From: Bacteroidales bacterium
GTDB taxonomy: Bacteria; Bacteroidota; Bacteroidia; Bacteroidales; JAAYJT01
Direction: 5' to 3'
DNA length: 64,000 nucleotides
Assembly (NCBI GenBank): GCA_014860575.1
Contig: JACZJK010000021.1
Coordinates: 1-64,000, forward strand
Every line of letters starts with the position of its first letter. Positions within the stretch are counted from its first letter, which is position 1. The translations under genes and the position numbers were made by a program. A model generated the notes under the pieces. It was not told where the DNA came from, did not search any database, and saw nothing but the letters and a program-made list of their open reading frames with translations. Shown here in pieces: positions 1 through 63,224 of this stretch.

Positions 1-3000
1 TATCTTGCTGCTTTAGACGCAGGTACCGGGGTTGCCACTTCCTGGGCGCCTAATCCCAATAGCATTGTCAACAGCATTTCCAGACATAATAATACCGTAT
101 ACGTTGGTGGACAATTCAGCATCATCAGTGGGCTCCAGCAATCAAACTTTGCCATGCTTGATGCAGGTACTGCCGAACTGGTTTCTCTGATCGGTGTGAA
201 TTCTACGGTTACAATCGTAGAGCAGGACAATGACAATATATACATTGGAGGTTCTTTCTCTGGTGCACAGGGTTTACAGGCGAGGTATGGCGCTCTCTTG
301 GGAACCGTAAGCGATGTTCCTGAGTTGAACTTTCCGGTTTTTAACTCTACTGTACATGCCAGCATACCCGATGGTGCAGGAGGTTGGTATGTTGGTGGGT
401 CTTTCACAGGTGTAGGTGGTAAGAATTACCTTATTCGCGTGCTTGCAAATAACACAGTTGATCCAACCTTCAGCCCTGCGCCAAATAGCACAGTTGTATC
501 GCTCTTTCTGCATGGCTCAACTTTATACGTGGGTGGGTGGTTTACACAGATTGGTGGGCAGCCCAGAACCTATCTTGCTGCTTTAGACGCTGGTACCGGG
601 GTTGCCACTTCCTGGGCGCCCAATCCTAATAGCATTGTCAACAGCATTACCATGCATAATAATACCGTTTATGTTGGTGGACAATACAGCATCATCAGCG
701 GGAGCCAGCAATCAAACTTTGCCATGCTTGATGCAAGCACAGCACAACTCGTTTCGCTGATCGTTGTGAATTCTACGGTTACAACCGTAGAGCAGGACAA
801 TGACAATGTATATATTGGAGGTTCTTTCGCTGGCGCACAGGGCTTGCAGGCAAGGTATGGCGCATTGCTGGGAACCGTAAGCGATGTTCCTGAGTTGAGC
901 TTTCCGGTTTTTAACTCTAATGTGAATGCCAGTATTCCCGATGGTTCCGGTGGCTGGTATATAGGTGGTTCTTTCTCAGGTGTAGGTGGTAAAAATTACC
1001 TGATTCGTGTGCTCGCCGATAACACCATTGACCCCACTTTCAGCCCGGCGCCAAATAGCATAATTCTTTCTCTTTACCTGCACGGTTCCACACTTTATGT
1101 AGGCGGTTACTTCACGCTAATTGGAGGTCAATCAAGAACTTATCTTGCTGCTTTAGACGCAGGTACCGGAGTTGCAACTTCCTGGGCGCCCAATCCCAAT
1201 AGCCTTGTCAACAGCATAACCAGGCATAATAATACCGTTTATGTTGGAGGACAATTCAGCATTATCAGCGGGCGCCAGAAATCAAACTTTGCCATGCTTG
1301 ATGAGAATACTGCTCAACTTGTTTCTCTGATGGGAGTAAATTCTACAATTCAGACAATTGAGCAGGACAACGATAATATTTACCTTGGCGGTTCATTTGC
1401 CGGCGCGCAAGGATTAGATGTTAGGTATGGCGCATTATTGGGTACCGGCGATGACAACCCGGCCCTCAACTTCCCCTCATTCAACAGCACAGTAAATGCG
1501 AGTATCCCTGACGGCGCGGGAGGCTGGTATGTGGCAGGTAGCTTTAGCGGTGTTGGCGGTAAAAATTACCTGGTACGTATTCTTGCCGACAATAGTATTG
1601 ACCCAGCCTTTTCTCCTGCGCCCAATTCATATGTTTATGCGCTGCACCTCGATGGAGGAGTTTTATACGTAAGTGGAATTTTTAGTCAGATAGGCGGACA
1701 ACCACGTCAAAACTTTGCAGCATTGAATTCCACAACCGGTGCTGCCTTAGCCTGGAATCCCGGCGGAAACAGCTATGCAAATACCATCATTACTGATAAT
1801 GATTTCATTTATGTAGGCGGGAACTTTACAACCATCGCAAACCAAGCGCGCAATTACATTGCCTCTTTTGATAAGGCTACCGGCAGTATTACCACCTGGA
1901 ACCCAAATTCAAACAGTTTGGTGTTTCGGCTTGCGCAAAGCGGCAGCATCGTATATGTTGTTGGTTCATTTTCAAACATAGGCGGCCAAAGCAGAAACCA
2001 TATCGCTGCCCTGGATAAATCAAGCGGACTGGCAACTTCCTGGAACCCAAACGCTAACTCATGGGTGTATGATATTCTACTGGATGGGGCAAATGCCTGG
2101 ATTGTTGGTAGTTTTGGCTCAGTTAATGGCCAGGCTAGAAACAGGATAGCAGAAATCAGCCTTAGCACCGGGGTTCCCACCTCATTTAACCCCGATGCGA
2201 ATAACACTGTTTATAATATTCGTAAATCCGGTACTACTCTCTTTGTAGCCGGAGAGTTTACCATCGTTGGCGGTCAGAACCGCAGCTACCTTGCTACCAT
2301 TGATGCTACAAGCGGAGCAGTCCAGAGTTGGAGTCCCATGGCCAATTCATCTGTTTACTCCATCTCATTGAGTGGTACCAAAATTTTTGCTGGTGGTAAT
2401 TTTACTTATATGAAATTTGTGAACCGAAATTTTTTACTTGCCATTTCCAAGGCAACCGGACTCATCACATCCTGGAACCCGGCTCCCAACAGCATAGTTT
2501 ATGGTATTTTACCTGATGGCAGCAATGCCTTTGTGGGAGGGAGTTTTGGGGTAATTGGCGGTCAGACACGCAACCGGATTGCACAGGTGAGCCTGACAAC
2601 GGGTAATGCAACCTCATGGAATCCGGATGCCAACAGTACCGTTTACCGACTTGCAAAGTCTGGCTCAACCATCTATGCTGGGGGCGAGTTCACCAACATT
2701 GGCGGACAGCCACGAAACTACATGGCAGCCCTGGATGCAACCGGCGGTACTGCACTTTCCTGGAACCCTATGGCCAACTCATCGGTTTATGCCCTTTCGG
2801 TTCAAAGCAACAAGTTATTTGCCGGTGGTGCTTTTACTTTCCTGAAATTTGCAAACCGAAACTATGTATTAGCGATCTCCAAAACTACCGGGCTCATCAC
2901 GTCCTGGAACCCTTCGCCCAACAGCACGGTTCACGGTATCTTTCCCGATGGCAGCAATGCCTATATTGGAGGAAGCTTTACAATGGTTGGCAGTGATTCG

Positions 3001-5895
3001 CGCAGCCGGATTGCACAGGTAAGTCTCAGTACTGGTGCAGCTACAGGCTGGAATCCGGGCGCCAATAGCACGGTTTACAAATTTGCTAAATCAGGCTCAA
3101 CAGTGTTTGCTGTGGGCGATTTTACAACCATTGCCGGAGAACCCCGCAATTACATCGCAGCCCTGGATGCTACTGTCGGTAATGCGCTATCATGGAACCC
3201 TATGGCCAACTCATCGGTTTATGCCCTTTCGGTTCAAAGCAACAAGTTATTTGCCGGTGGGGCTTTTACTTTTCTGAAATTTGCAAACCGAAACTATATC
3301 TTAGTGATCTCCAAAACTACCGGGCTCATCACATCCTGGAACCCTTCACCCAACAGCACAGTTCACGGCATTTTTCCCGATGGCAGCAATGCCTATATTG
3401 GAGGAAGCTTTACAACGGTTGGCAGTGATTCGCGCAGCCGGATTGCACAGGTAAGTCTGAGTACCGGTGCAGCTACAACATGGAATCCGGGCGCCAATAG
3501 CACGGTCTATAAATTCGATAAATCAGGTTCAACAGTTTTTGCCGTGGGTGAATTTACCGCCATTGCCGGAGAACCCCGTAATTACATCGCAGCGCTGGAT
3601 GTAGTCAGTGGCACTGCGCTTTCATGGAATCCACAACCCAATAGCTCTGTTTATACCGTTGTTGTTCAAGGCACAAAGGTGTTTGCGGGAGGAACATTTA
3701 CATACTTGAAATTTGCGAACCGGAACTTTTTGTTGGCTCTATCAAAGACTACAGGATTGATTACTTCATGGAACCCCTCAGCCAACAGTACAGTACATTC
3801 TCTCTTAACGGATGGTAGTAATATGTACGTCGGTGGAAGTTTTTCTGTTATCGGAGGCCAATCCCGAAACCGCATTGCTGAACTCAGCCTTAGTACCGGT
3901 AATGCAAGTGCGTGGAACCCGGATGCAAACAGCACAGTATATTCTATAGCTAAAAATGGCAGTACCATCTATGCCGGCGGTGCCTTTACAACCATTGGTG
4001 GGCAGCCCCGCAACTATGTAGCTGCTATTGACAACAGCGGATCAATCCTGCCGTGGAATCCAAGACCAAACAGCGTTGTTTATCAGGTTAAAATGTCGGG
4101 TAGTGATGTTATTATTGGTGGTAATTTTAGTTTCCTCAATGCAGGTTCAAGGTCTAACCTGCTGGCTTTATCAAAGACCACAGGTGAAATCACTTCCTGG
4201 AATCCTGCTCCCAATTCAACGGTTCAAACCATTGAGCTCAATGGTGGAAATGTTTACGTTGGTGGCTGGTTTACCCAGATAGGAGGGCAACCACGTAACT
4301 ACATTTCAGAAGTTAGCCTAAGTACCGGAAGCGTAACTTCATGGAATCCCAACTCAAATTCTGTGGTTCTCAGCATAGCTAAAAACGGTGGAAACGTTTA
4401 TGCAAGTGGTTATTTCACCAGCATTGGCGGCCAGCCAAGGAACTACCTGGCATCACTGGATGCTGTTACCGGCCTGGCAACACTGTGGAGTCCAAATCCG
4501 AATAATTACCCCTGGAAGTTGCATATTTCTGATGGGGTTTTATACGCTGGAGGGGATTTCACTATTATTGGAGCAGAACCCAGAAACCGGCTCGCCTCGT
4601 TCACTCTTCCCGCTGAAACGCTTACCGCCTGGGATCCTAATGCTAACAGTACCGTTAGGGATATTCACAGCACACAAACCACTTTATACATTGCTGGTAG
4701 TTTTACCCAGGTTTCAGGCGAAGACCGCGGACGCGGGGCCAGGTTCGATAAAGCCAGCGGTGTACTTCAGGAATGGAATCCGCTCTCAAACAACACCATA
4801 AACTCCATAACCAGCAAAGGTAAACTGTTTTTCATGGGTGGAAACTTCAGCAATATTGGAGGTAACCCAGCTGGAGGCTTTGCTTCAGTCAATCTGAATA
4901 CCATGGAATTTATTCCCTTTTTTCCGGTAGCCAATTCAGCTATTAATACGATTCTTCCCTCTGGCAAACAGGTTTACATTGGTGGCAGTTTCTCAATAAT
5001 AGGTGGAATTCCACTGACCGGACTTGCCACTGTTTCCTATACCAACGATCTGCTCATGCCCGATGTGGAGGATTACAATCCTAAACTTGCTGCCAATAAC
5101 GGTACAGTGGCAGTTACAATTTTAGGCAATGCATTCCTTGGTGCTGTTACCGTGAAACTCACCAAAACCGGCGAAGCCGACATCCCTATGCAAAGTATGG
5201 TGATTACCGACGGTATTAAGATTGAAGGAACTTTTAATATAAATGCTGCAGCGTTGGGATTGTGGGATATTGTAATAGAAGTGCCTGGTTTTGGTGTTGT
5301 TTCATCGTGTGCACATGGCTGTACTTTCAGGGTAATTGAAACCGGATTTCCTGTGAACTTATCCTTGCAAAACATTACTGTAAACAGTCCAAACAGCGAA
5401 TGTTACGCTGCACTGGAAACCATTACCATTGCCGGTGATGGAACCACCTTCACTGTCAATTCTGGAGCCAGCGCTGAGTTTGCCGCTTATACCAGCGTTA
5501 CTGCAAAACCCGGCGCTCATTTTAAGGCAGGGTCAAACGTTATCATGAGGATAGAAACAGTGCATTATTTCTGCTTTAACGATGAATCAATGCTTAAAAC
5601 TGATCACCTGCTTATTGACGATTTTGCTTTAAGATCTGATATTGATGGTGATAAGAATAATTTATTCCAGGTTTATCCTAATCCAACAAGCGGAAGGTTT
5701 ACGCTTGAATTATCGGAAATTGCTACTAACGTTACAGTTGAGATCTATGGCTTACTGGGCGAACAACTCCTGAGAAAGGATGTATCGGGCTTTATAACGT
5801 ATGAGTTCGACCTTTCGAGCCAGCCGCGGGGTATTTACATCATCCGTGTGCTGAATGGCAATGAAATGGGGATTCAGCGGGTGATAAGGCAATAA
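1..5895 (+). CDS. Giant secreted beta-propeller-repeat protein with T9SS type-A sorting domain (5' end outside window)
   Basis: The reading frame is open from base 1, so the start codon and signal peptide lie upstream; at least 1964 residues are present. Most of the protein is a run of roughly 45-50-residue units with recurring cores such as YVGGxFTxIGGQxRNYxAALD and TGxxxSWNPxxNSxVY, resembling DUF5122/delta-60 beta-propeller blades. The units group into longer repeats: a 570-bp period at the start (copies begin at 1, 571 and 1141) and a 432-bp period at about 2450-3900. The last 80 or so residues (VYPNPTSGRFTLEL, then GIYIIRVLNG) match the T9SS type-A C-terminal domain, so export through the T9SS to the cell surface or medium is expected from family knowledge. 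The ligand or function is unknown. A terminator follows at once. Confidence 0.9.
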   Translation, partial: YLAALDAGTGVATSWAPNPNSIVNSISRHNNTVYVGGQFSIISGLQQSNFAMLDAGTAELVSLIGVNSTVTIVEQDNDNIYIGGSFSGAQGLQARYGALLGTVSDVPELNFPVFNSTVHASIPDGAGGWYVGGSFTGVGGKNYLIRVLANNTVDPTFSPAPNSTVVSLFLHGSTLYVGGWFTQIGGQPRTYLAALDAGTGVATSWAPNPNSIVNSITMHNNTVYVGGQYSIISGSQQSNFAMLDASTAQLVSLIVVNSTVTTVEQDNDNVYIGGSFAGAQGLQARYGALLGTVSDVPELSFPVFNSNVNASIPDGSGGWYIGGSFSGVGGKNYLIRVLADNTIDPTFSPAPNSIILSLYLHGSTLYVGGYFTLIGGQSRTYLAALDAGTGVATSWAPNPNSLVNSITRHNNTVYVGGQFSIISGRQKSNFAMLDENTAQLVSLMGVNSTIQTIEQDNDNIYLGGSFAGAQGLDVRYGALLGTGDDNPALNFPSFNSTVNASIPDGAGGWYVAGSFSGVGGKNYLVRILADNSIDPAFSPAPNSYVYALHLDGGVLYVSGIFSQIGGQPRQNFAALNSTTGAALAWNPGGNSYANTIITDNDFIYVGGNFTTIANQARNYIASFDKATGSITTWNPNSNSLVFRLAQSGSIVYVVGSFSNIGGQSRNHIAALDKSSGLATSWNPNANSWVYDILLDGANAWIVGSFGSVNGQARNRIAEISLSTGVPTSFNPDANNTVYNIRKSGTTLFVAGEFTIVGGQNRSYLATIDATSGAVQSWSPMANSSVYSISLSGTKIFAGGNFTYMKFVNRNFLLAISKATGLITSWNPAPNSIVYGILPDGSNAFVGGSFGVIGGQTRNRIAQVSLTTGNATSWNPDANSTVYRLAKSGSTIYAGGEFTNIGGQPRNYMAALDATGGTALSWNPMANSSVYALSVQSNKLFAGGAFTFLKFANRNYVLAISKTTGLITSWNPSPNSTVHGIFPDGSNAYIGGSFTMVGSDSRSRIAQVSLSTGAATGWNPGANSTVYKFAKSGSTVFAVGDFTTIAGEPRNYIAALDATVGNALSWNPMANSSVYALSVQSNKLFAGGAFTFLKFANRNYILVISKTTGLITSWNPSPNSTVHGIFPDGSNAYIGGSFTTVGSDSRSRIAQVSLSTGAATTWNPGANSTVYKFDKSGSTVFAVGEFTAIAGEPRNYIAALDVVSGTALSWNPQPNSSVYTVVVQGTKVFAGGTFTYLKFANRNFLLALSKTTGLITSWNPSANSTVHSLLTDGSNMYVGGSFSVIGGQSRNRIAELSLSTGNASAWNPDANSTVYSIAKNGSTIYAGGAFTTIGGQPRNYVAAIDNSGSILPWNPRPNSVVYQVKMSGSDVIIGGNFSFLNAGSRSNLLALSKTTGEITSWNPAPNSTVQTIELNGGNVYVGGWFTQIGGQPRNYISEVSLSTGSVTSWNPNSNSVVLSIAKNGGNVYASGYFTSIGGQPRNYLASLDAVTGLATLWSPNPNNYPWKLHISDGVLYAGGDFTIIGAEPRNRLASFTLPAETLTAWDPNANSTVRDIHSTQTTLYIAGSFTQVSGEDRGRGARFDKASGVLQEWNPLSNNTINSITSKGKLFFMGGNFSNIGGNPAGGFASVNLNTMEFIPFFPVANSAINTILPSGKQVYIGGSFSIIGGIPLTGLATVSYTNDLLMPDVEDYNPKLAANNGTVAVTILGNAFLGAVTVKLTKTGEADIPMQSMVITDGIKIEGTFNINAAALGLWDIVIEVPGFGVVSSCAHGCTFRVIETGFPVNLSLQNITVNSPNSECYAALETITIAGDGTTFTVNSGASAEFAAYTSVTAKPGAHFKAGSNVIMRIETVHYFCFNDESMLKTDHLLIDDFALRSDIDGDKNNLFQVYPNPTSGRFTLELSEIATNVTVEIYGLLGEQLLRKDVSGFITYEFDLSSQPRGIYIIRVLNGNEMGIQRVIRQ

Positions 5896-7015: not shown

Positions 7016-7515
7016 AATGGCCAGAACTGATTGTCGTACCAGATTTTTTCCTTCAGTTCTTCGTTGAGTTCGTGCAAGATTTTGTGATGGCCTTTTTCCC
7101 AATTAGCCAGAAAATTATAAAGATCTTTTTCAACCTGATCAGATGAGTCTTTTGCCCGCTTTGAATAAACCTCGATAGCCTTGGTTTCCATATCAATGGC
7201 TGCTGAAATTGCGGCTGCCTCAAATCCTGATGCCGAAAGGCGATTGGTGATTTCAGTGCTTAGCACCATATCAGCAATTGATTCATCAGCTTTTGGAGCA
7301 ATGCTTACTACTTCGAATTTACCGGTTTTCTCGTAATTCTTATAATGTTGTGCAAGGAACTCAATATGAAGTTGCTCTTCCTTGGCCATGATAGAAAATA
7401 TTTTTCTTACATCCTCATCACCAGTTTTTTCGGCAACGGTTTCATAGAATGCCTTTCCGCGTTTTTCGAGCAGGATGGCGGTTTTTAAAATGTCAAGTGC
7501 AGTGTTTGTTTCCAT
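7012..7515 (-). CDS. Ferritin-like diiron protein of the rubrerythrin family, lacking the rubredoxin domain
   Basis: A 167-aa, largely helical protein. The first half carries E17 (LLEKRG) and E46/E47 with H50 (AKEEQLH). The second half repeats the pattern with METKAIEVY and WEKGHHKIL. This spacing fits the four-helix diiron site of rubrerythrin-like ferritin-fold proteins, commonly used for peroxide detoxification in anaerobes. The C-terminal CxxC rubredoxin domain of classical rubrerythrin is absent, so an external electron donor would be needed. It stands alone on the minus strand. The peroxide-protection role is an inference from the family. Confidence 0.8.
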   Translation of the reverse strand: METNTALDILKTAILLEKRGKAFYETVAEKTGDEDVRKIFSIMAKEEQLHIEFLAQHYKNYEKTGKFEVVSIAPKADESIADMVLSTEITNRLSASGFEAAAISAAIDMETKAIEVYSKRAKDSSDQVEKDLYNFLANWEKGHHKILHELNEELKEKIWYDNQFWPF

Positions 7516-8146: not shown

Positions 8147-9577
8147 ATGAATATTGATTTACAATCAAGTGTTATCGCATCGTTACAAAAGCTCTTCACG
8201 ACTTACTTTGGAAAGCCTGCGGCTAATGTTGTGGCTTTGCCTGATTCTGGTTCCGACCGTAAGTACTTCCGGTTAAGCTCAGATGAAGTTTCGGTTATTG
8301 GTTCCTACAATCCAAATCAGACTGAGCACGCCACGTTCCTTTACCTTAGCGATCATTTCAAATCAAAAAAACTCCCGGTTCCTGAAGTTTTAGTTTCGGA
8401 TCAGATAGAAGGATTTTATCTTTTGCAAGACCTCGGCGATGAAAGCCTGCTTGCATGGATTGAAAGGAACCGGTCAAAAACGGACTTTAATGCGAACCTG
8501 ATCCGCAAGTACGAAAGAGTTTTGCGTGATCTATTCAACTTCCAGATCAGGGGCGATGCAGACCTGGATTACAGTCAGCTGCCTGTTCCGGTGTTTGATT
8601 CACGATCAATGCGTTGGGATCTGAACTATTTTAAATACTATTTCTTAAAACCTGCCGGGATTTTATTTGATGAGAAAGCCCTGGATGATGATTTTGAAGC
8701 CCTGGTAAATTTTCTGTCTGGCGAACCAATGCAGGGTTTTATGTACCGCGATTTCCAGGCAAGAAACATCATGCTGAAAGATGAAAAGTTCTGGTATATA
8801 GATTTTCAGGGAGGAAGGAAAGGGCCGCTGCAGTACGACCTTGTGTCTTTGCTGTTCCAGGTTAAAGCTGCGATTCCTGATGATATCAAAGAGCAACTCA
8901 CAGATTATTACATGCTGGAACTGAGCGAAATTTCAGACTTTGATAGTGCTGGCTTCAGAAAAAGATACAATGGATTTGTGCTTTTACGTTTGCTACAGGT
9001 AATGGGAGCTTACGGCTTCAGGGGTTGGTTCGAACGAAAGCAACATTTTATTGACAGCATTTTTATGCTACGACCCAACCTAGATTGGGCGCTTGGCCAT
9101 GATGCGTTGCCAGGGAAACTGCCTGAACTCAAAAGAATACTGAATGCAATTATTGAGAAAATGGATAATGATACACTGACACCACAAAACATTTTAACTG
9201 TGAGCATCAACAGCTTTTCGTACCGGCGGGGAATTCCTTACGATCCCAGCGGGCATGGGGGAGGTTTCGTGTTTGATTGCCGCATTTTGCCAAATCCCGG
9301 AAGACTTGATGAATACAAGCTGCTTAGCGGAAAAGATGAGGAGGTAATTTCTTATCTCGGCAATGAACCTGTAGTGCTTGCGTTTGTTGACAATGTACTG
9401 CAGTTGGTAAAGCAGGCAGTTTCAAGCTTTCAGAAAAATAACTACACGAATCTGCAAATCAATTTTGGTTGTACTGGTGGCAGGCACCGCTCAGTGTATT
9501 GTGCTGAAAAGCTGGCAGCGGCTTTAGGTTCCCAAAGTAATATTGCTGTCACCTTGCAGCACCGCGAATTACATTAA
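8147..9577 (+). CDS. AmgK-like amino-sugar kinase fused to a RapZ C-terminal domain
   Basis: A 476-aa two-domain protein. Residues about 1-330 are an APH-fold phosphotransferase: a nucleotide-binding region around SGSDRKYFRL, the Brenner-type catalytic loop YRDFQARNIM (about 199-208) and the metal-binding DFQGGRKGPLQYDL (about 218-231). These loops resemble AmgK, the anomeric MurNAc/GlcNAc kinase of peptidoglycan recycling. Residues about 345-476 match the RapZ C-terminal domain, including FDCRILPNPGRLDEY and GCTGGRHRSV (about 441-450). In E. coli that domain senses GlcN6P and binds the sRNA GlmZ. It heads an operon whose fourth gene is MurU-like, which supports the amino-sugar assignment. 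The fusion suggests sugar sensing attached to the kinase; this is inference. Confidence 0.85.
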   Translation: MNIDLQSSVIASLQKLFTTYFGKPAANVVALPDSGSDRKYFRLSSDEVSVIGSYNPNQTEHATFLYLSDHFKSKKLPVPEVLVSDQIEGFYLLQDLGDESLLAWIERNRSKTDFNANLIRKYERVLRDLFNFQIRGDADLDYSQLPVPVFDSRSMRWDLNYFKYYFLKPAGILFDEKALDDDFEALVNFLSGEPMQGFMYRDFQARNIMLKDEKFWYIDFQGGRKGPLQYDLVSLLFQVKAAIPDDIKEQLTDYYMLELSEISDFDSAGFRKRYNGFVLLRLLQVMGAYGFRGWFERKQHFIDSIFMLRPNLDWALGHDALPGKLPELKRILNAIIEKMDNDTLTPQNILTVSINSFSYRRGIPYDPSGHGGGFVFDCRILPNPGRLDEYKLLSGKDEEVISYLGNEPVVLAFVDNVLQLVKQAVSSFQKNNYTNLQINFGCTGGRHRSVYCAEKLAAALGSQSNIAVTLQHRELH

Positions 9578-13692: not shown

Positions 13693-13768
13693 GGCAGTTG
13701 GCAGTCTGCAGTTGGCAAATCCCCATCCTGCATCACTGTATTACTCCATCACCGTATTACTGCATCAC
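13693..13768. repeat. Intergenic heptad and octad micro-repeats
   Basis: Four 7-bp units (GGCAGTT, GGCAGTC, TGCAGTT, GGCAAAT) fill 13693-13720. Five 8-bp units alternating between TGCATCAC-like and TGTATTAC-like sequences fill 13729-13768. The array lies between two convergent genes; the rest of the 203-bp gap shows nothing I recognise. Confidence 0.8.
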
Positions 13769-19438: not shown

Positions 19439-22400
19439 CTAATCTTTAAGGCAGCGCACCGGCCTTCCAATTGTATAAGAGTCCCACAACCGGTAAGAAC
19501 CATCCTGAGTAGTCAAGTATCTGGTCATTAGGCCAAACGAATACAAACTCGATGACCACCAGCCTCCACTGCCACCAAGACCATCATATGTCCCAGTTGT
19601 GTAGCGACGGCCTGTAGGCAAAGCACTGAATCCATAAAGGTCCGTTCCTACGCCACCGTACCATCCGGTTGTGGATTTAAGGTTTTTGCCAACATCAAAG
19701 CCCCTCAATCCATGACTGTTCCAGATAGTATCTCCAACGACATAATCGCTATCCGCAGTACCCTCCAATATTTTACATTCATCATCTGTAGGAATATGCC
19801 ATCCTGCTGGACATAAGCTATTTGCGTTGCATACTGCATATCCATTATACAAGGCGCCATAGATGTCCTTATAAGTACTATCATTGTTATACCATGCATA
19901 TGCGCCCGTCGTATTGTATTCCCATGCAGTGTTGCTGCTGCCGGGATATTCAATGGGGGTACCATTCTGGTATTGCGTGGTTTTGAGATTTTCTTTCATC
20001 CAGCACTGGTTGCCAATTTGCACGGTATTGTAAACATTGCCGTCGTTATCTATTACGAAGGAACCGGTAGTAAAATTGAGTTGGATTCCGTATGCTGTTC
20101 CAGTGGCGTTGCTGGCGTAAGCCCTCAAATAATAAGTGGTTGCAGGGTCAAGGCCGGTTAGGTTGCTAGTGAACTCACCTAAGCCGAAACCATCGGCAGT
20201 AATGCCCAGGTTGCTAGCCGTTGTTGGGTTTGCCTGTGTGCTCCAAACTACCCCACGGTCGGTAACAGGGGAACCACCGGCATGGATTACCTGCCCTCCT
20301 GATATTGCAGAAATTTCGGTTATAACGGTTGCCGGAGTGGTTGAAAGATAAGGCAGTGTGGAAATTTCGTTGTAGAGTGCCAAGACTTCAGTATCAGATA
20401 GGGCGCTTCCGTAAATGCGGATGTCATCCATCTTTCCGAAAACAACTGTTGGTCCTGTCCTGGAATCCCGTCCAATAAAGAATGGCCCGGCAGGGGCAAT
20501 ATTGGATCCTACATCGGGGAAGGTTTCTATTAGCTGGCCATTTAAATAAATATGGAATGAATCAGTAATGACATCTCTGATGAAGGTTACAAAATACCAG
20601 GAATGTGCCGAAACCACACCAGGAGGCGTATATAAATCTCTTTCGCCATTATTCCAGTAAATGCGAAGCCTGTAATCGGTATGTTTCTCGAAGTTAACAT
20701 TATAGGCAGTATTGTAACTGCCAAATAAGATGCCACGGCTGTCGTCATTAAAATACATCCAGCATGAAAAGGTCAAACTTCCACTAAAAACAGGGGGGTA
20801 TCCACTGTTTAACATCACACCAGAGTTGCTGCCGTTGAATGACAAGGCTTTGCCTGGGATTCCAAATCTGTCTGTTGTCCAGGTTGTACCCATGTTCACA
20901 CCATGATAGTTGTTACCCGAGTAATCAAAGAAATTACCATCAAAAGGGAACCAGGCCTCATGTATTTCAATGTAGGGTAATACAGAAATATAGTCAGTCC
21001 TGGTTTTGGTATTGCTTACACCACCGCTTGAAGTGGTAAGTGTGACTGAATAAGTGCCAGGTGTATAATAAGTATGAGAAGGGTTCTGCGCTGATGAACT
21101 ATTTCCATCGCCAAAATCCCATAGCCAACTACTTGGATTGTTAGTTGAAAGGTCATTGAAGTTTACGTTTAGTGGTGCTAAGCCGCTGGTTGGGCCTCCG
21201 GTAAAGTTGGCGTCATTCTTCACACAACGAACGCTATGGCCATTAGCTTTATTAATATTGTTACGGTAAACTGTACTTTTCATGTTACCTAAATCTCTGT
21301 ACCATGCCAGGGTGGTGGATACCTCGGTGGATGACCAAAGGTAACCGTAGGTGCCAAAATTGTTGTATGAGCCGTTTGCACCGCGGGAGCCGGCGGGCAG
21401 GAATGAAAAACCCAATGCGTCAGTTCCGTAATGTGTAGCATGAGCTTCCCATCGCGGATGTATTGATGTGTTGCAATCCCCGCCCAATGGAGAATTTATC
21501 TGCCTGCAGGATTTTAAAATATTTCCAACATTGATGTCATTAATAAAATCAGTGAGCTGAGTTAATTCCTGATCTGATGGAGCGCGCCATCCTGCCGGGC
21601 AAAGTTCATTGACATTCGTTACTGCATATCCATTGTATAATGCTCCGTAATTGTCCTTCCACGACATATCATTGCCATGCCATGCATAGGCTCCGATAGT
21701 ATTATTTTGCCAGGCAGTGTTATCAGAACCCGGGTAAACAATGGATTCGCCATTGCGGTACATTGTTGTCTTCAGGTTCTCTTTCATCCAGCACTGGTCG
21801 CCAATTTGTACGGTATTGTATGTGTTGCCATCAATATCATACAAAACTGAGGTTTCACATATAAATTCACCGCTGGTAAACTGTACCTGGTTTCCATATC
21901 CTGTACCGGCACTATTGGTGCCATAAGCCCTCACATAATAAGTCGTCTGGGCAATAAGTCCGGTTATTTCACTGCTGAATTCACCTGTGCCTTCTCCATC
22001 GGTGGTAAAGCCATCATTGCTTTCAAGGCTTGGGCTCACAGAAGTGCTCCAGACAACACCGCGGGCTGTGATTTCAGCACCGCCATCACCGGCAATATTT
22101 CCACCTGAAGTAGCTGTGGTGGCTGTTATATTGGTCACAGGGTTTGTTATCACAGTTGGCAAATCCACCATAGGTCCACTCCTGATGCATCGGACGGAAA
22201 AGCCCACTTCCTGATAATTGTCAGAATGCATTTCTGTACTGCCATAACTGAAGTACAGATAGAAGCCGATTCCGAGATCGTAATATTCAGTGGAGCTCCA
22301 CCAGTAGCCCCCTTCACCAATGCTCTCATAAGGGCCAAAACTACGGTTGCCACCTGGCAACGCTGAGAAACCAAAAACATCAAAACCATGATGTGTGCTA

Positions 22401-23191
22401 TGCGCATTCCAGCGCGGATGTTCGGTTGTATTACAATCTCCGCCCAAAGGTGAATTTACCTGCCGGCATGATTTCAGGGCATTGCCTGCACCGTTCGGAT
22501 TGTCCCACTGGTCAGGATAGCCCTGGTCAACAAGATAATCAACCAATTGGATCCATTCATCAGAACTGGGAATATGCCATCCTGCAGGGCATAAACCCTT
22601 AGAATTTGAAGTTGCAGGCCAGTTATAAAGCGCGCCATAAGCGTCCTTCATTGCAATATCATTATCATACCAGGCATAAGCGCCGTTTATATTACTACTC
22701 CAGGCTTCGTTGTCGCTGCCCGGATATTCAATGGATGATCCATTGCGGTATTTTGTGGTTTTAAGGTTTTCTTTCATCCAGCACTGCTCGCCTATCTGAA
22801 CCGTGTTGTATATGTTATCATCAACGTCTGTGATGGTTTCAGGGCAAGGTTCAGTTTCAACCGCAATCAATTTCAGTTTTGCATCAGGGCTGTAGGTTCC
22901 CGGGAAACTGCCCAGGCCATCCCAGACAAGGGATCTGCTTCCGGGAGTGATACCCATATAACTACCTGTTAGAAACTCTTCAGGAATTGGTATGTATGCA
23001 CTATCGCTGTGAAAGCGCACCTCAAGGCTAAGGTCGTAGGCAGCTCCTGGACCACTCAGGGTAAAATAAACATCAACAAAGCCGCTGCCATCGGTTCGCT
23101 GGCTAACCGTAATGTTGCTGAATGAGCCGCTTTGTGCCATACAAAGCGTTGCTGTTAGGAGGCAAATCGTGGTAGAAATCAGTTTTCTCAT
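19439..23191 (-). CDS. Exported protein with three FISUMP domains, PKD and LamG-like domains
   Basis: A 1250-aa protein with a signal peptide (KLISTTICLLTATLCMAQ). Three FISUMP (Fibrobacter succinogenes major paralogous) domains lie at about 113-340, 444-658 and 1043-1250. Each opens with YNTVQIGxQCWMKENLKTT and contains GALYN and CPAGWxxP. Between them are two bacterial fibronectin-like segments (TTYYVRAYxxNxxGTxYG), a PKD domain at about 660-740 (WLWDFGDGNSSSAQNPSHTY) and a LamG/concanavalin-like domain at about 755-940 (LSFNGSNSGVML). Unlike its neighbour it ends in the third FISUMP domain with no visible T9SS sorting domain, so its route past the outer membrane is unclear. A role in adhesion or glycan binding is an inference from the domains. 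Confidence 0.9.
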   Translation of the reverse strand: MRKLISTTICLLTATLCMAQSGSFSNITVSQRTDGSGFVDVYFTLSGPGAAYDLSLEVRFHSDSAYIPIPEEFLTGSYMGITPGSRSLVWDGLGSFPGTYSPDAKLKLIAVETEPCPETITDVDDNIYNTVQIGEQCWMKENLKTTKYRNGSSIEYPGSDNEAWSSNINGAYAWYDNDIAMKDAYGALYNWPATSNSKGLCPAGWHIPSSDEWIQLVDYLVDQGYPDQWDNPNGAGNALKSCRQVNSPLGGDCNTTEHPRWNAHSTHHGFDVFGFSALPGGNRSFGPYESIGEGGYWWSSTEYYDLGIGFYLYFSYGSTEMHSDNYQEVGFSVRCIRSGPMVDLPTVITNPVTNITATTATSGGNIAGDGGAEITARGVVWSTSVSPSLESNDGFTTDGEGTGEFSSEITGLIAQTTYYVRAYGTNSAGTGYGNQVQFTSGEFICETSVLYDIDGNTYNTVQIGDQCWMKENLKTTMYRNGESIVYPGSDNTAWQNNTIGAYAWHGNDMSWKDNYGALYNGYAVTNVNELCPAGWRAPSDQELTQLTDFINDINVGNILKSCRQINSPLGGDCNTSIHPRWEAHATHYGTDALGFSFLPAGSRGANGSYNNFGTYGYLWSSTEVSTTLAWYRDLGNMKSTVYRNNINKANGHSVRCVKNDANFTGGPTSGLAPLNVNFNDLSTNNPSSWLWDFGDGNSSSAQNPSHTYYTPGTYSVTLTTSSGGVSNTKTRTDYISVLPYIEIHEAWFPFDGNFFDYSGNNYHGVNMGTTWTTDRFGIPGKALSFNGSNSGVMLNSGYPPVFSGSLTFSCWMYFNDDSRGILFGSYNTAYNVNFEKHTDYRLRIYWNNGERDLYTPPGVVSAHSWYFVTFIRDVITDSFHIYLNGQLIETFPDVGSNIAPAGPFFIGRDSRTGPTVVFGKMDDIRIYGSALSDTEVLALYNEISTLPYLSTTPATVITEISAISGGQVIHAGGSPVTDRGVVWSTQANPTTASNLGITADGFGLGEFTSNLTGLDPATTYYLRAYASNATGTAYGIQLNFTTGSFVIDNDGNVYNTVQIGNQCWMKENLKTTQYQNGTPIEYPGSSNTAWEYNTTGAYAWYNNDSTYKDIYGALYNGYAVCNANSLCPAGWHIPTDDECKILEGTADSDYVVGDTIWNSHGLRGFDVGKNLKSTTGWYGGVGTDLYGFSALPTGRRYTTGTYDGLGGSGGWWSSSLYSFGLMTRYLTTQDGSYRLWDSYTIGRPVRCLKD

Positions 23192-27330: not shown

Positions 27331-27450
27331 CAAGACCCAAATTCCAAGCCCCAAATCCCAAGAAAAGACACAAGAATCAAGATACAAGAGACAAGAATCA
27401 AGACAGAAGTATCAAGACACAAGAAACAAGAGACAAGAATCAAGAAACAT
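27331..27450. repeat. CAAGNNN heptad array
   Basis: Units starting with CAAG or a near variant recur every 7 bp. From 27371 to 27444 eleven consecutive units keep exact 7-bp phase (CAAG at 27371, 27378, 27385, 27392, 27399, then GAAG at 27406, and CAAG again to 27441). A second in-phase block runs from 27331 to about 27365, offset by 5 bp. It lies between convergent genes. Confidence 0.85.
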
Positions 27451-27491
27451 GGAACTTGAAACCAGAAAAAAGCAACCCGGAGCTTTGAACC

Positions 27492-27635
27492 TTGAGTCCA
27501 CTCCGAAAAGTCACAAGTTGCTGATTTTTGTCATTTTTAACCCCTGACCCCTAAAGGGGAAACGCTAAAAATCAGCAATTTGTCAAAGTCCCCTTTAGGG
27601 GATTTAGGGGCAAATTGACTTTTCAGAGTGGACTC
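27492..27635. repeat. Dispersed palindromic intergenic element, copy A
   Basis: The ends are 19-bp inverted repeats with one mismatch (GAGTCCACTCCGAAAAGTC at about 27492 and its complement ending at 27635). Inside are a second inverted pair (TTGCTGATTTTT and AAAAATCAGCAA) and CCCTAAAGGGG palindromes. The reverse complement of its right half is clearly related to the element at 40852-40960. Confidence 0.75.
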
Positions 27636-27637
27636 AA

Positions 27638-27754
27638 CCTTGAACCTTGAACCCGCAACTTTGAACTCCATATGCCGAATGCTGAAACCGAGAAGGTGAG
27701 AAAATGAGAATACGAGCGCATGGAAATCCCAGTTTCTCAGTTTCTCAGTTTCTC
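27638..27754. repeat. CCTTGAA heptads and AGTTTCTC octads
   Basis: Seven 7-bp units (CCTTGAA twice, then CCCGCAA, CTTTGAA, CTCCATA, TGCCGAA, TGCTGAA) occupy 27638-27686. Three exact 8-bp AGTTTCTC copies occupy 27731-27754, 21 bp before the rny stop. Confidence 0.8.
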
Positions 27755-27774
27755 ATCTTACCATATTTAAGAGA

Positions 27775-40779: not shown

Positions 40780-40851
40780 GGAAGTTCGGGAATTTGTTTG
40801 TTGATAAATTTGTTTGATGATGGTAGGGTAGGAGTTATGAATTATGAATGT

Positions 40852-40960
40852 TGAGCCTCCTCCGAAAAGTCAATATGCCCCTAAATTACTCACTTCGTTC
40901 GTGAGATCGCTTCGCTAAGTTCCCTAAAGGGGACTTCCACAAACTGCTGATTTTTATCGG
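40852..40960. repeat. Dispersed intergenic element, copy B, with internal insertion
   Basis: GAAAAGTCAATATGCCCCTAAAT and CCCTAAAGGGGACTT, then TGCTGATTTTTA, follow the reverse complement of the element at 27.5 kb. Relative to that copy it has an extra 35 bp at about 40887-40921, which itself contains a CTCAC/GTGAG hairpin and CTTCGTTC/CGCTTCGC motifs. Confidence 0.75.
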
Positions 40961-41098
40961 TTCTGCGCTGTGGAAGATCTGGGACTAAAAAGCAGATTAT
41001 GACCTTTCGTAGCAAACTCAAAATTAAATGTTGTATTTTGAATCTTGAACCCGTCACTTCGACCCCAAACGCTACTTCGACAAACTCAGTGACCGGCA

Positions 41099-41196
41099 TT
41101 TTGAATATTGAATTTTGAATCTGGAATCTTAAACGTCGAACGTCGAACAGCGAACATGAAACTTTGAACTTCGAACCCGAAACGCCCAAACGCCAA
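41099..41196. repeat. NNNNGAA heptad array
   Basis: Fourteen consecutive 7-bp units, most ending in GAA or AAA (TTTTGAA, TATTGAA, TTTTGAA, TCTGGAA, TCTTAAA, CGTCGAA twice, CAGCGAA, CATGAAA, CTTTGAA, CTTCGAA, CCCGAAA, CGCCCAA, ACGCCAA). It ends 3 bp before the M23 peptidase stop. Confidence 0.85.
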
Positions 41197-61738: not shown

Positions 61739-62206
61739 TCAGGTTTTAGGTTTTACAATTATTTTACTATGATCTACGCTGATAACCACGATTTTTGTTT
61801 GTGGTTCAATATATTCTCCAAGAGAATCAACTTCGTAAAATTCACCATTAATGATCGCTTTTCCCACCGGGGCAAGCCTGGAAACTGTTGTTCCCTCATC
61901 TCCGGCCATTACTTTGTCCAATTCGATAGTATTTACTCTTGAATTTACTTCAGTGCTGAGCATTACTTTATTCCATGTTTTTGACTTTAAAGCCAGAACC
62001 AAAAGCAATATCGTGAACAATATTGCACCGAGCAGGAAGTAATGACCTTCAGGTGTACCGTGGCTAGCATAGGCCTGCCATACACTCACACCAATTGCTA
62101 CGAATCCAAGTATTCCAAATACGGTAACTCCCGGAACTACAAGGATTTCAAGCAGCATAAACAATAGGCCGGCGAGAAGGAAAATGATGATTAGAGTCCA
62201 GGACAT
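61739..62206 (-). CDS. NfeD-like membrane protein
   Basis: A 155-aa protein with three hydrophobic segments (LIIIFLLAGLLFMLLEIL, ILGFVAIGVSVW, and LLGAILFTILLLVLAL) and a C-terminal OB-fold of about 60 residues (GDEGTTVSRLAPVGKAIINGEFYEVDS). This is the short NfeD class without the ClpP-like protease domain, which partners flotillins in microdomain assembly. The GKAIINGEFYEV strand is typical of the NfeD OB-fold. Upstream lies the long heptad repeat array. Confidence 0.9.
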   Translation of the reverse strand: MSWTLIIIFLLAGLLFMLLEILVVPGVTVFGILGFVAIGVSVWQAYASHGTPEGHYFLLGAILFTILLLVLALKSKTWNKVMLSTEVNSRVNTIELDKVMAGDEGTTVSRLAPVGKAIINGEFYEVDSLGEYIEPQTKIVVISVDHSKIIVKPKT

Positions 62207-62223
62207 GGGGGAGGTTGTTCAAA

Positions 62224-62377
62224 GTTCAAGGTTCAAGGTTCAAGGTTCAAGGTTCAAGGTTCGGAGTTCAGGATTCAAGATTCATAATTGGTAATTGGTA
62301 ATTGGTAATTCGTAATTCGTAATTCGTAATTCGTAATTCGTAATTCGTAATTCGTAATTCGTAATTCGTAATTGGGT
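62224..62377. repeat. 22-unit heptad array with changing unit sequence
   Basis: Exactly 154 bp in 7-bp phase: five GTTCAAG units, then GTTCGGA, GTTCAGG, ATTCAAG and ATTCATA, three ATTGGTA, nine ATTCGTA and a final ATTGGGT. The phase is unbroken although the unit changes in blocks. It lies between the nfeD start and the M48 stop. Confidence 0.9.
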
Positions 62378-62423: not shown

Positions 62424-63224
62424 CTAGTTGGGTTTTTTATAATATTTCATAGCTTCGGGCAGAAATTCCTGAATAGCTTTCACTCGGTCTTCACTGCCTG
62501 GGTGAGTGCTTAAAAATGTGGGTGGTGTGGGCCCGCTAATTTTGGCCATTTCCTGCCAGAACTCTAAAGTTCGTTCGGGATTATAGCCTGCCATTGCCAT
62601 GAATATCATTCCTAACTTATCAGCTTCATATTCATGCTGACGCGAGTAAGCAAGGGTTCCTAACGTGCCGCCGATTCCGTATGCCAGCATAAATATATCC
62701 TTGGTTTCCTGCGGTTTTTCACTCAGTGCGACATCAAGTGTGACTGCTCCCAGCATCAATGCCATTTGCTGGCTCATACGTTCGTTGCCATGATTGGCAA
62801 CTGCATGGGCAATTTCATGGGCCATCACAACGGCAATACCTGCTTCATCTTTGGTGTAAGGGAAAATCCCGGTATAGAATACTATTTTACCTCCCGGCAT
62901 GCACCAGGCATTTACTTCATCGTTTAGAACCGTGTTAAATTCAAAGTCAAAAACGCGGTTTTGAATTTTTGAATCCTTGATATAGGTGATTACTGCATCT
63001 GCAACCCGGTCACCAACCTTATTCACAAGCATGGCATTTGGATTGTCAGGAGGTAAAACCGGGTTTTCGGCTAAGAACTCACTGTACGAAGTCAAACTCA
63101 TATTAATGAGCATGTTTTCCGGAAGCAATTTTAACTGACGCCGGCCACTTAATGGCACAGTGGAACAAGAGGCAATAAAAAGTGTTACCAACAGAAATGC
63201 AATTTTCTTATGAACCATTACCAT
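62424..63224 (-). CDS. M48-family metallopeptidase lipoprotein
   Basis: A 266-aa protein with a lipoprotein signal (AFLLVTLFIASC, Cys at about residue 20). VVMAHEIAHAVANHGNERMS holds the zinc HExxH at about 135-139, and HEYEADKLGMIFM holds the third ligand Glu. This matches the periplasmic BepA/LoiP-type M48C group, which degrades or matures misassembled outer-membrane proteins. Its C-terminal TPR seen in BepA is missing, so it is closer to LoiP/YggG. ATGs at 63224 and 63218 are both possible. It lies 15 bp downstream of clpS. Confidence 0.92.
   Translation of the reverse strand: MVMVHKKIAFLLVTLFIASCSTVPLSGRRQLKLLPENMLINMSLTSYSEFLAENPVLPPDNPNAMLVNKVGDRVADAVITYIKDSKIQNRVFDFEFNTVLNDEVNAWCMPGGKIVFYTGIFPYTKDEAGIAVVMAHEIAHAVANHGNERMSQQMALMLGAVTLDVALSEKPQETKDIFMLAYGIGGTLGTLAYSRQHEYEADKLGMIFMAMAGYNPERTLEFWQEMAKISGPTPPTFLSTHPGSEDRVKAIQEFLPEAMKYYKKPN

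What the first reader, a model, noticed from the sequence alone, without database searches (positions are those of the whole stretch)
62224..62377. Intergenic array of 22 heptads in unbroken 7-bp phase with block-wise changing unit
The gap upstream of nfeD is filled by 154 bp of strict 7-bp units. The unit moves from GTTCAAG through ATTCATA and ATTGGTA to nine ATTCGTA without losing register, so phase is conserved more than sequence. Similar arrays occur at 13.7, 27.3, 27.6 and 41.1 kb. The nearest known parallel is the STRR heptanucleotide repeats of filamentous cyanobacteria. A slippage or templated-copy process that measures 7 bp is an inference.
Basis: partly seen in the sequence, partly recalled or inferred. 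Interest (0 to 1): 0.75.

Follow-up and report, generated by a model that had tools for sequence, protein, structure and literature searches.

The report
Dispersed composite intergenic 7/8-bp repeat arrays
The gap before a bacterial gene is filled by 7-letter DNA repeats that belong to a genome-wide set of 7- and 8-letter repeat blocks, often strung together in the same order at many separate places, a known kind of DNA repeat in an unusually organised form.

Summary
The array is real: 23 heptads in one register at 62217-62377, between nfeD and an M48 peptidase gene; lag-7 identity reaches 49/49. Two same-genus genomes have the same gene pair with a shorter gap and no array. It is one case of a wider pattern: 786,693 sampled bases (18% of the genome) hold 33 heptad and 34 octad arrays, mostly intergenic.

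The new point is organisation. At 33 separate loci anchored on the octad TCCATYAC, same-strand CAAR heptads lie upstream at 16 and downstream at 0, TTCAA heptads at 12 and 0, TGCATCAC octads at 1 and 13. An exact 22-base core stands between heptads and octads at 11 of its 12 places. So many arrays are parts of a dispersed, polar composite repeat, which locus-by-locus slippage does not explain.

Most likely: blocks grow by slippage in 7- or 8-bp steps (inferred), and composite segments were copied between intergenic sites by an unknown route. A templated-copy machine is not supported: the only reverse transcriptases found are DRT3 beside a (CA)n stretch. The word ATTCGTA itself recurs in many phyla. 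Known kind (heptanucleotide repeats), new variant.

The parts
62217..62258 (+). Block 1: GTTCAAA then five GTTCAAG heptads (type T7)
   Evidence: Read directly. The pattern (GTTCAAR)2GTTCAA occurs 38 times in this genome, 3 in congener G002, 36 in G048, 4 in G014, 0 in the other 56 of 59 relatives; the reversed control is non-zero only in G042, 7 matches.
62259..62286 (+). Transitional heptads GTTCGGA, GTTCAGG, ATTCAAG, ATTCATA bridging the two main blocks in register
62287..62307 (+). Block 2: three ATTGGTA heptads
   Evidence: the same ATTGGTA-to-ATTCGTA junction is in an Ignavibacteriales record (L038)
62308..62370 (+). Block 3: nine ATTCGTA heptads
   Evidence: the only (ATTCGTA)3 in this genome, but found in at least 116 stretches of named genomes of many phyla
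62371..62377 (+). Last, degenerate heptad ATTGGGT
61739..62206 (-). nfeD, reading away from the array; the array lies just upstream of its start
   Evidence: Pfam NfeD; orthologues in G001 and G002
62424..63224 (-). M48 peptidase gene, upstream neighbour in the same direction
   Evidence: Pfam Peptidase_M48; same neighbour in G001 and G002 without an array
27360..27476 (+). Heptad array of CAAG type (CAAGAAT, CAAGACA, CAAGAGA ...)
27485..27644 (.). Dispersed palindromic element (arms 27485-27513 / 27616-27644) sitting inside GTTCAAG-type heptads
27730..27755 (+). Short octad array CAGTTTCT x3.2
   Evidence: TRF
41094..41183 (+). Heptad array (TTGAATA ... TCGAACG ... TTGAACT), overlapped by an ORF that is probably spurious
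13693..13768 (+). Short heptad run followed by a 16-bp (two-octad) unit CATCACCGTATTACTC resembling the TGCATCAC octads
   Evidence: TRF

Best explanation
The array is a block of non-coding tandem repeats made of two heptad modules (GTTCAAR and ATTCGTA) joined in register. It belongs to a genome-wide set of intergenic composites built from 7-bp and 8-bp modules. Each module grows and shrinks by replication slippage in whole-unit steps, and point changes are spread locally; this gives blocks that change word but keep phase (inferred). Segments of composites have been copied between separate intergenic sites, so module order, strand and in some copies a non-periodic core are shared (shown by shared letters for other composites of this genome; inferred for the nfeD array, which lacks the core). 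The copying route is unknown; ectopic recombination between arrays or passive co-mobilisation are the simplest (inferred). No gene-directed function is needed.
For: Period 7 and 8 enriched, mostly intergenic, none in shuffles. Lineage-specific: G001 and G002 keep the M48-nfeD pair with shorter gaps and no array. Order at 33 TCCATYAC loci: CAAR heptads same strand upstream 16 vs downstream 0, opposite strand 1; TTCAA heptads 12 vs 0; TGCATCAC octads upstream 1 vs downstream 13. An exact 22-mer core has 12 copies in the genome, control 0; read by eye, 12 of 12 have heptads upstream and 11 of 12 TCCA-type octads downstream, one of these (L397) with only two units. The 123-bp stretch around one copy matches over 83-123 bases at 14 places of this genome (14 of 161 candidates were scored), and only in pieces of 26-41 bases in 9 of 59 relatives, where also at most 14 candidates were scored. 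One-seed slippage simulations reach the observed block gradient in 0-1% of runs, or 4-9% if changes too are confined to the growing end; two-seed in 59-95%. No RNA structure: z +0.65 and +0.36. No bias to gene direction: 10 (+,+) vs 9 (-,-) among 28 classifiable composites, 21 vs 24 for ATTCGTA in tandem gaps of named genomes.
Against: No direct evidence of slippage: no strain pair differing in copy number was available. The copying agent was not found; the one Y1 transposase match carries a stop. The core is absent at the nfeD array, so its membership rests on GTTCAAR followed by ATTCGTA, seen at only one other of six ATTCGTN loci (L378; the reversed control of that pattern had 2 matches). 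Heptad-heptad order is less regular than heptad-octad order: CAAG and TTCAA heptads lie on the same strand in 6 and on opposite strands in 4 of 10 pairs (L413 is such a case). GTTCAAR arrays of G048 and G014 that I could read (two loci each) are short and plain, without octads, so that word at least also makes ordinary arrays. ATTCGTA is favoured in unrelated phyla (41 viral stretches vs 3, 6, 1 and 0 for controls), which neutral slippage does not predict. In tandem gaps of this genome the amino-rich strand of 35 arrays was sense in 21, antisense in 9, neutral in 5, and viral ATTCGTA arrays were 6 sense and 15 antisense, weak hints of a gene-direction bias. The simulations depend on my choice of rates, and the two-seed model was built to have two blocks.
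Confidence: 0.57

Rival explanations
1. Ordinary independent slippage at each locus (heptanucleotide long simple sequence repeats), with shared words arising because some units slip more easily.
For: Heptamers are the commonest category of long SSR in most genomes and a polymerase-contact length of 7 nt has been proposed (Mrazek 2007 as told in PMC4679880). Same word in unrelated phyla. G026 and G314 have arrays with other words. GTTCAAR arrays in G048 and G014 read so far are plain.
Against: Module order and strand shared at 33 loci and an exact 22-base non-tandem core at 12 places need common descent for those composites. One-seed simulations mostly miss the gradient.
Confidence: 0.17
2. Selected regulatory DNA: arrays of binding sites or untranslated-region elements controlling nearby genes.
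For: Intergenic placement; a translational role was proposed for TAACTGA arrays (PMC4679880).
Against: Absent at the orthologous gap in two congeners. No clear orientation bias. No stable RNA fold. Only 1 of 36 array-bearing gaps is divergent although 59 of 380 gaps are.
Confidence: 0.12
3. A non-autonomous mobile element (MITE- or REP-like) whose body happens to consist of 7- and 8-bp repeats, moved by a transposase.
For: Dispersed conserved core with a 9-pair inverted repeat kept in 9-11 of 11 aligned copies per pair; lineage-specific burst; a palindromic element sits in or beside heptads at several places.
Against: No constant ends seen in the alignment of 12 copies. No compensatory changes in the 12 predicted pairs. 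No match of the core stretch in plasmids or phages; the exact 22-mer is in no viral contig.
Confidence: 0.1
4. RNA-templated repeat addition by a telomerase-like reverse transcriptase (DRT10 type) whose products were captured in the chromosome.
For: DRT10 makes tandem repeats from an A-B-A' RNA template with variable unit length (PMC12632851). This genome has a Drt3a, which also matches the UG17 (DRT10) model at lower score.
Against: Only two RVT_1 matches in the genome, Drt3a and Drt3b, followed by a CACACACACA stretch; DRT3 is reported to make poly(TG) and poly(CA) (PMC13174585 abstract). Many words of two lengths would need many templates.
Confidence: 0.03

Closest known systems
Heptanucleotide repeats of cyanobacteria (STRR; recalled, Mazel 1990) and heptameric long simple sequence repeats (Mrazek 2007, via PMC4679880)
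   Same: 7-bp tandem units, intergenic, many loci per genome, sporadic among lineages
   Different: Here as many 8-bp arrays, words that change in blocks within one array, and composites with a preferred order and strand
TAACTGA direct repeats of Beggiatoaceae, cyanobacteria and some Bacteroidetes (PMC4679880)
   Same: Intergenic heptamers; long mixed heptamer assemblages reported in Gramella, Aequorivita and Elizabethkingia; for several Gramella and Aequorivita arrays the closest relative has a shorter gap without obvious repeats; indels mostly in 7-nt steps between two Cyanothece strains
   Different: The TAACTGA dimer is absent from my 786,693-base sample; octads and a shared core are not described in the sections I read
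GGGAATC / GGGGA(C/T)T heptads of Xanthomonas and Nostoc (PMC4692102, passages)
   Same: Intergenic heptads with a degenerate unit
   Different: G-quadruplex-forming words; their dimers are absent in my sample
Satellite families in prokaryotes (PMC6749651, passages)
   Same: Heptamer-derived families reported, said to have arisen locally; another group of short repeats said to have been transposed within species
   Different: No polar composite of 7- and 8-bp modules in the passages read

Membership tests
Heptanucleotide long simple sequence repeat (STRR-like, broad sense) | Head-to-tail 7-bp units beyond chance | tested here: met
Heptanucleotide long simple sequence repeat (STRR-like, broad sense) | Mainly intergenic and at many loci of the genome | tested here: met
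   28 of 33 heptad arrays mostly intergenic while 90% of the sample is coding by my ORF caller
Heptanucleotide long simple sequence repeat (STRR-like, broad sense) | Copy number changes by whole units between strains | not testable with these tools
   No strain of the same species was among the genomes listed; the two same-genus genomes share only 69% and 56% identity in NfeD
TAACTGA repeats | Unit TAACTGA | tested here: not met
   0 dimers in 786,693 bases
REP/BIME elements with RAYT transposase (definition recalled) | Palindromic unit plus an intact Y1 transposase in the genome | tested here: inconclusive
   One Y1_Tnp match with an in-frame stop; core has a 9-pair inverted repeat without covariation; the nfeD array folds no better than shuffles
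DRT10 / telomerase-like repeat products | A UG17-type RT with an A-B-A' RNA template of the repeat word in the genome | tested here: not met
   RVT_1 search found only Drt3a and Drt3b, template-like stretch (CA)n; no separate search with a UG17 model was run
CRISPR array (definition recalled) | Repeats of about 23-45 bp with unique spacers | tested here: not met
   Contiguous 7-bp units without spacers

The most novel reading that the evidence does not exclude
A directional repeat-writing or repeat-moving process lays down 7-bp modules first and 8-bp modules after them on one strand (TTCAA and CAAR heptads, then CCAATTAA, TCCATYAC and TGCATCAC octads), so that intergenic DNA of this lineage is written in an ordered vocabulary, and favoured words such as ATTCGTA and TCCATYAC reappear in other phyla or classes because the same process works there.
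Probability: 0.12. Interest if true: 0.85.

Novelty: new variant of a known kind. Interest (0 to 1): 0.55.

Why it matters
Heptamer arrays are long known (recalled, and PMC4679880), without an agreed origin. A genome in which they are modules of a polar composite with a shared core separates two steps that are usually lumped together, local growth in 7- or 8-bp steps and movement between sites, and gives loci where both can be tested. The arrays also mark contig ends (4 of 19 sampled contig starts), so they matter for assembly.

Tried and rejected
Telomerase-like RT origin: rejected for this genome. Structured RNA: no Rfam match in the window but a tRNA, no fold better than shuffles, no covariation in the shared core. 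Replication-strand bias: I first thought modules were concordant within contigs; the GC-skew test shows that skew follows gene direction and gives no usable replichore signal, so I dropped it. Phage or plasmid vehicle: the core stretch has no match in the plasmid or phage records and its 22-mer none in viral contigs, although octad and heptad words are in viral contigs. Insertion into a coding gene: an octad array lies in frame in a xanthine dehydrogenase gene of G314 (L339); the best PDB match lacks about 7 residues there, suggestive only. Single-seed slippage, uniform or end-directed: reaches the observed gradient in 0-9% of runs depending on the model. Literature searches for such composites listed no description of them; these cover open-licence PMC papers only, and I read four of the listed papers in part and one in abstract.

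Rows dropped: L019 (all N); L318 left out of the gap listing but kept; L403 left out of the alignment (short flank); five genomes chosen for holding (ATTCGTA)3 left out of the unselected count. Of 75 TCCATYAC matches the tool listed 66, which reduce to the 33 loci examined (two neighbouring ones on C55 held as one).

Full report
What is there. Positions 62217-62377 hold 23 heptads in one register: GTTCAAA, five GTTCAAG, GTTCGGA, GTTCAGG, ATTCAAG, ATTCATA, three ATTGGTA, nine ATTCGTA, ATTGGGT. The flanking genes are nfeD (61739-62206, minus; Pfam NfeD) and an M48 peptidase gene (62424-63224, minus), with floA downstream (NCBIfam PRK13665). The array takes 161 of the 217 bp of the gap.

Chance. 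Only lags 7, 14 and 21 pass the threshold in the window among lags 2-24. In 786,693 sampled bases (window plus 39 stretches, L019 dropped as all N) there are 33 arrays at lag 7 and 34 at lag 8, against at most 6 at any other lag up to 30 that is not a multiple of 7 or 8. Of these, 28 and 32 are mostly intergenic although 90% of the sample is coding by my simple ORF caller. In the first 388,736 bases, shuffles gave none apart from the all-N contig. Of the 19 readable stretches, all beginning at a contig start, 4 hold an array within their first 300 bases (L017, L021, L033, L034), so assemblies seem to break there and the count is probably a lower bound.

Lineage. The same gene pair stands in the two same-genus genomes (NfeD 69% and 56% identical), where the gap is shorter and holds no array. 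G001 has no lag-7 or lag-8 array in 99,727 bases (2,478 of them N); G002 has three at lag 7 and none at lag 8 in 101,400, one at a contig end with GGTTCAA units. In 540 kb from 12 other genomes of the order, not chosen for arrays, there are 6 heptad and no octad arrays, all in G026, with other words. Five further genomes in that call had been chosen because they hold (ATTCGTA)3 and are left out of the count.

Composite order. Reading the arrays side by side showed the same sequence of modules at separate loci. I anchored on the octad pattern ACTCCATNACTCCATNACTCCA: 75 matches in this genome, 0 in 59 relatives, 3 of 394 other genomes of the phylum, reversed control 0. The octad pattern CACTGCATCACTGCATCAC likewise has 6 matches here and 0 in 59 relatives. 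Of the 75 matches 66 were listed; they reduce to 33 loci, all examined within 400 bp each side, which can reach into genes. On the same strand, CAARNNN heptads lie upstream at 16 loci and downstream at 0; TTCAA heptads 12 and 0; TGCATCAC octads 1 and 13; CCAATTAA octads 5 and 7. On the opposite strand there are one CAARNNN and one TCCA octad upstream, both at L318, two GGTTRCT heptads downstream, and a short palindromic motif counted on both strands. Several composites fill the gap from gene to gene. Pair counts in the 786,693-base sample agree for heptads against octads: CAAG heptads before TCCATCAC in 7 of 8 pairs, TCCATCAC before TGCATCAC in 6 of 7, CCAATTAA on the same strand as TCCATCAC in 9 of 9 with either order. 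Heptads against heptads are less regular: CAAG and TTCAA on the same strand in 6 and on opposite strands in 4 of 10 pairs, CAAG and GGTTRCT on opposite strands in 4 of 5.

Shared core. The exact 22-mer CTTAAATCTGGAATTTTGAATT has 12 copies in the genome, control 0. Read by eye, all 12 have heptads upstream (L403 only three units before the contig starts); 11 of 12 have TCCA-type octads downstream, L397 with two units only, L396 being the exception. A 123-bp query around one copy gives 14 matches in this genome over 83-123 bases, the 14 being all that the tool scored of 161 candidates; in 59 relatives only pieces of 26-41 bases match, in 9 genomes, again with at most 14 candidates scored each. 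The shared letters mean common descent of dispersed copies, not parallel slippage. A 9-pair inverted repeat spans the core, with no compensatory change.

The nfeD array within this. It joins GTTCAAR heptads to ATTCGTA heptads. ATTCGTNATTCGT occurs at six loci of the genome, reversed control 2 matches; GTTCAA-type heptads stand upstream on the same strand at two of them, here and at L378, where the order runs GTTCAA-type, ATTCGTC/A, TCCATYAC, CCAATTAA, TGCATCAC. The 22-mer core is absent here. Unit distance and unit difference correlate at r = 0.61; none of 5,000 random orders of the same units reaches this. One-seed slippage reaches it in at most 0.3% of runs with uniform growth, at most 1% with growth at one end and 4-9% if changes too are confined to the growing end; two joined blocks reach it in 59-95%. 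The two-seed model was built with two blocks, so this shows consistency, not proof.

The same word elsewhere. GTTCAAR arrays occur in G002, G014 and G048. Of the loci held, the two of G048 and two of G014 are short plain arrays (3 to 8 units), one of them followed by other heptads, none by octads; in G002 one GTTCAAR array is followed by a palindrome beginning GAGTCCAC and ending GGAGTGG, and then TTCAAG. So this word makes ordinary arrays in other families, and the ordered composite is so far seen only in this genome. In G314 and G183, outside the class, heptad-like units stand upstream of TCCATYAC arrays at some loci (by eye).

Function. No RNA fold beyond shuffles on either strand, no Rfam family at the array. 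Around 28 composites with both neighbours classified, 10 lie between (+,+), 9 between (-,-), 6 convergent and 3 divergent genes in the frame of the composite (my count on the output, 32 loci; 4 more were at contig edges). For (ATTCGTA)3 in 116 stretches of named genomes, 82 are intergenic, 14 coding, 20 at edges, with 21 sense and 24 antisense in tandem gaps. Viral stretches gave 6 sense and 15 antisense, and arrays of this genome 21 amino-rich sense, 9 antisense, 5 neutral in tandem gaps; these are weak signs of a bias. Only 1 of 36 array-bearing gaps is divergent, while 59 of 380 gaps are, as expected if arrays are tolerated where they do least harm.

Word preference across phyla. The genome-contig scan stopped at its limit with 116 stretches; the record titles include Nostocales and other cyanobacteria, Bacteroidota, Ignavibacteria, Acidobacteria, Anaerolineae, Planctomycetota, KSB1, Akkermansia, Vibrio and candidate phyla; many are metagenome bins, whose labels can be wrong. 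In viral contigs (ATTCGTA)3 is found in 41 stretches of 36 contigs against 3 stretches for its reversal and 6, 1 and 0 for three words of the same composition. In relatives 5 of 59 have it, reversed control 1 of 59. So the word is favoured, for a reason I cannot give.

Templated synthesis. DRT10 makes tandem repeats from an RNA template (PMC12632851, passages). The only RVT_1 matches in this genome are adjacent Drt3a and Drt3b, followed by GGCACACACACAAG, and DRT3 is reported to make poly(TG) and poly(CA) (PMC13174585, abstract and outline). This gives no source for heptads.

Known background. [quoted passage not shown] PMC4692102 and PMC6749651 were read in passages. STRR is recalled. So the kind is known; a polar composite of 7- and 8-bp modules with a shared core was not found in the listings.

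Verdict. Observation confirmed and extended; heptanucleotide repeat in the broad sense; a new variant because of composite order, octads and shared core. Slippage is inferred, copying between loci is shown for composites with the core, its route is unknown.

Noticed in passing
window 27485-27644 and 40844-40991; L017:4982-5153, L032:17443-17601, L029:19788-19968, L026:17019-17231; L369, L397, L399; L406 (genome G002): Dispersed palindromic element of about 160 bp (GAGTCCACTC..GAGTGGACTC at 27 kb; the copy at 40.9 kb shows no inverted arms). It sits inside or directly beside GTTCAAG or CAAA-type heptads at 27.5 kb, in L369, L397 and L399, and a palindrome with like ends sits in GTTCAAR heptads of the congener G002. 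It may use heptads as target.
   Followed up: partly
G000 contig C58, about 20481-22534 (L376, L377): A DRT3 system: Drt3a and Drt3b side by side, with a CACACACACA stretch just after Drt3b that looks like its RNA template.
   Followed up: partly
L356, L365, L368, L369, L372, L374: Another dispersed piece, AATCCCCCTAACCC(C/A)CTT..(C)AAGGGGG..GCTCTTCGCAAACTTA or similar, nested in the octad composites (by eye).
   Followed up: no
L017:1277-1322, 7077-7131 and 8451-8504 (the last is also in L303); similar motif in L311 (three times) and L366: A further dispersed motif with an inverted repeat, GGATGC..CCC...GGG..GCATCC, beside heptads.
   Followed up: no
L339 about 1500-1535 (genome G314): Octad array CACTCCAT in frame inside a xanthine dehydrogenase gene, where the best PDB match lacks about 7 residues.
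   Followed up: partly
genome G048 (36 matches of the GTTCAAR pattern): A different family of the order nearly as rich in GTTCAAR heptads as this genome, without the TCCATYAC octads; two loci read are plain arrays.
   Followed up: partly
L144 (Trichormus sp. NMC-1 scaffold4): A run of 89 perfect ATTCGTA copies in a cyanobacterial record.
   Followed up: no
window 1-5895: Long protein with a T9SS sorting domain and large internal repeats with spacings of 432 and 570 bp.
   Followed up: no
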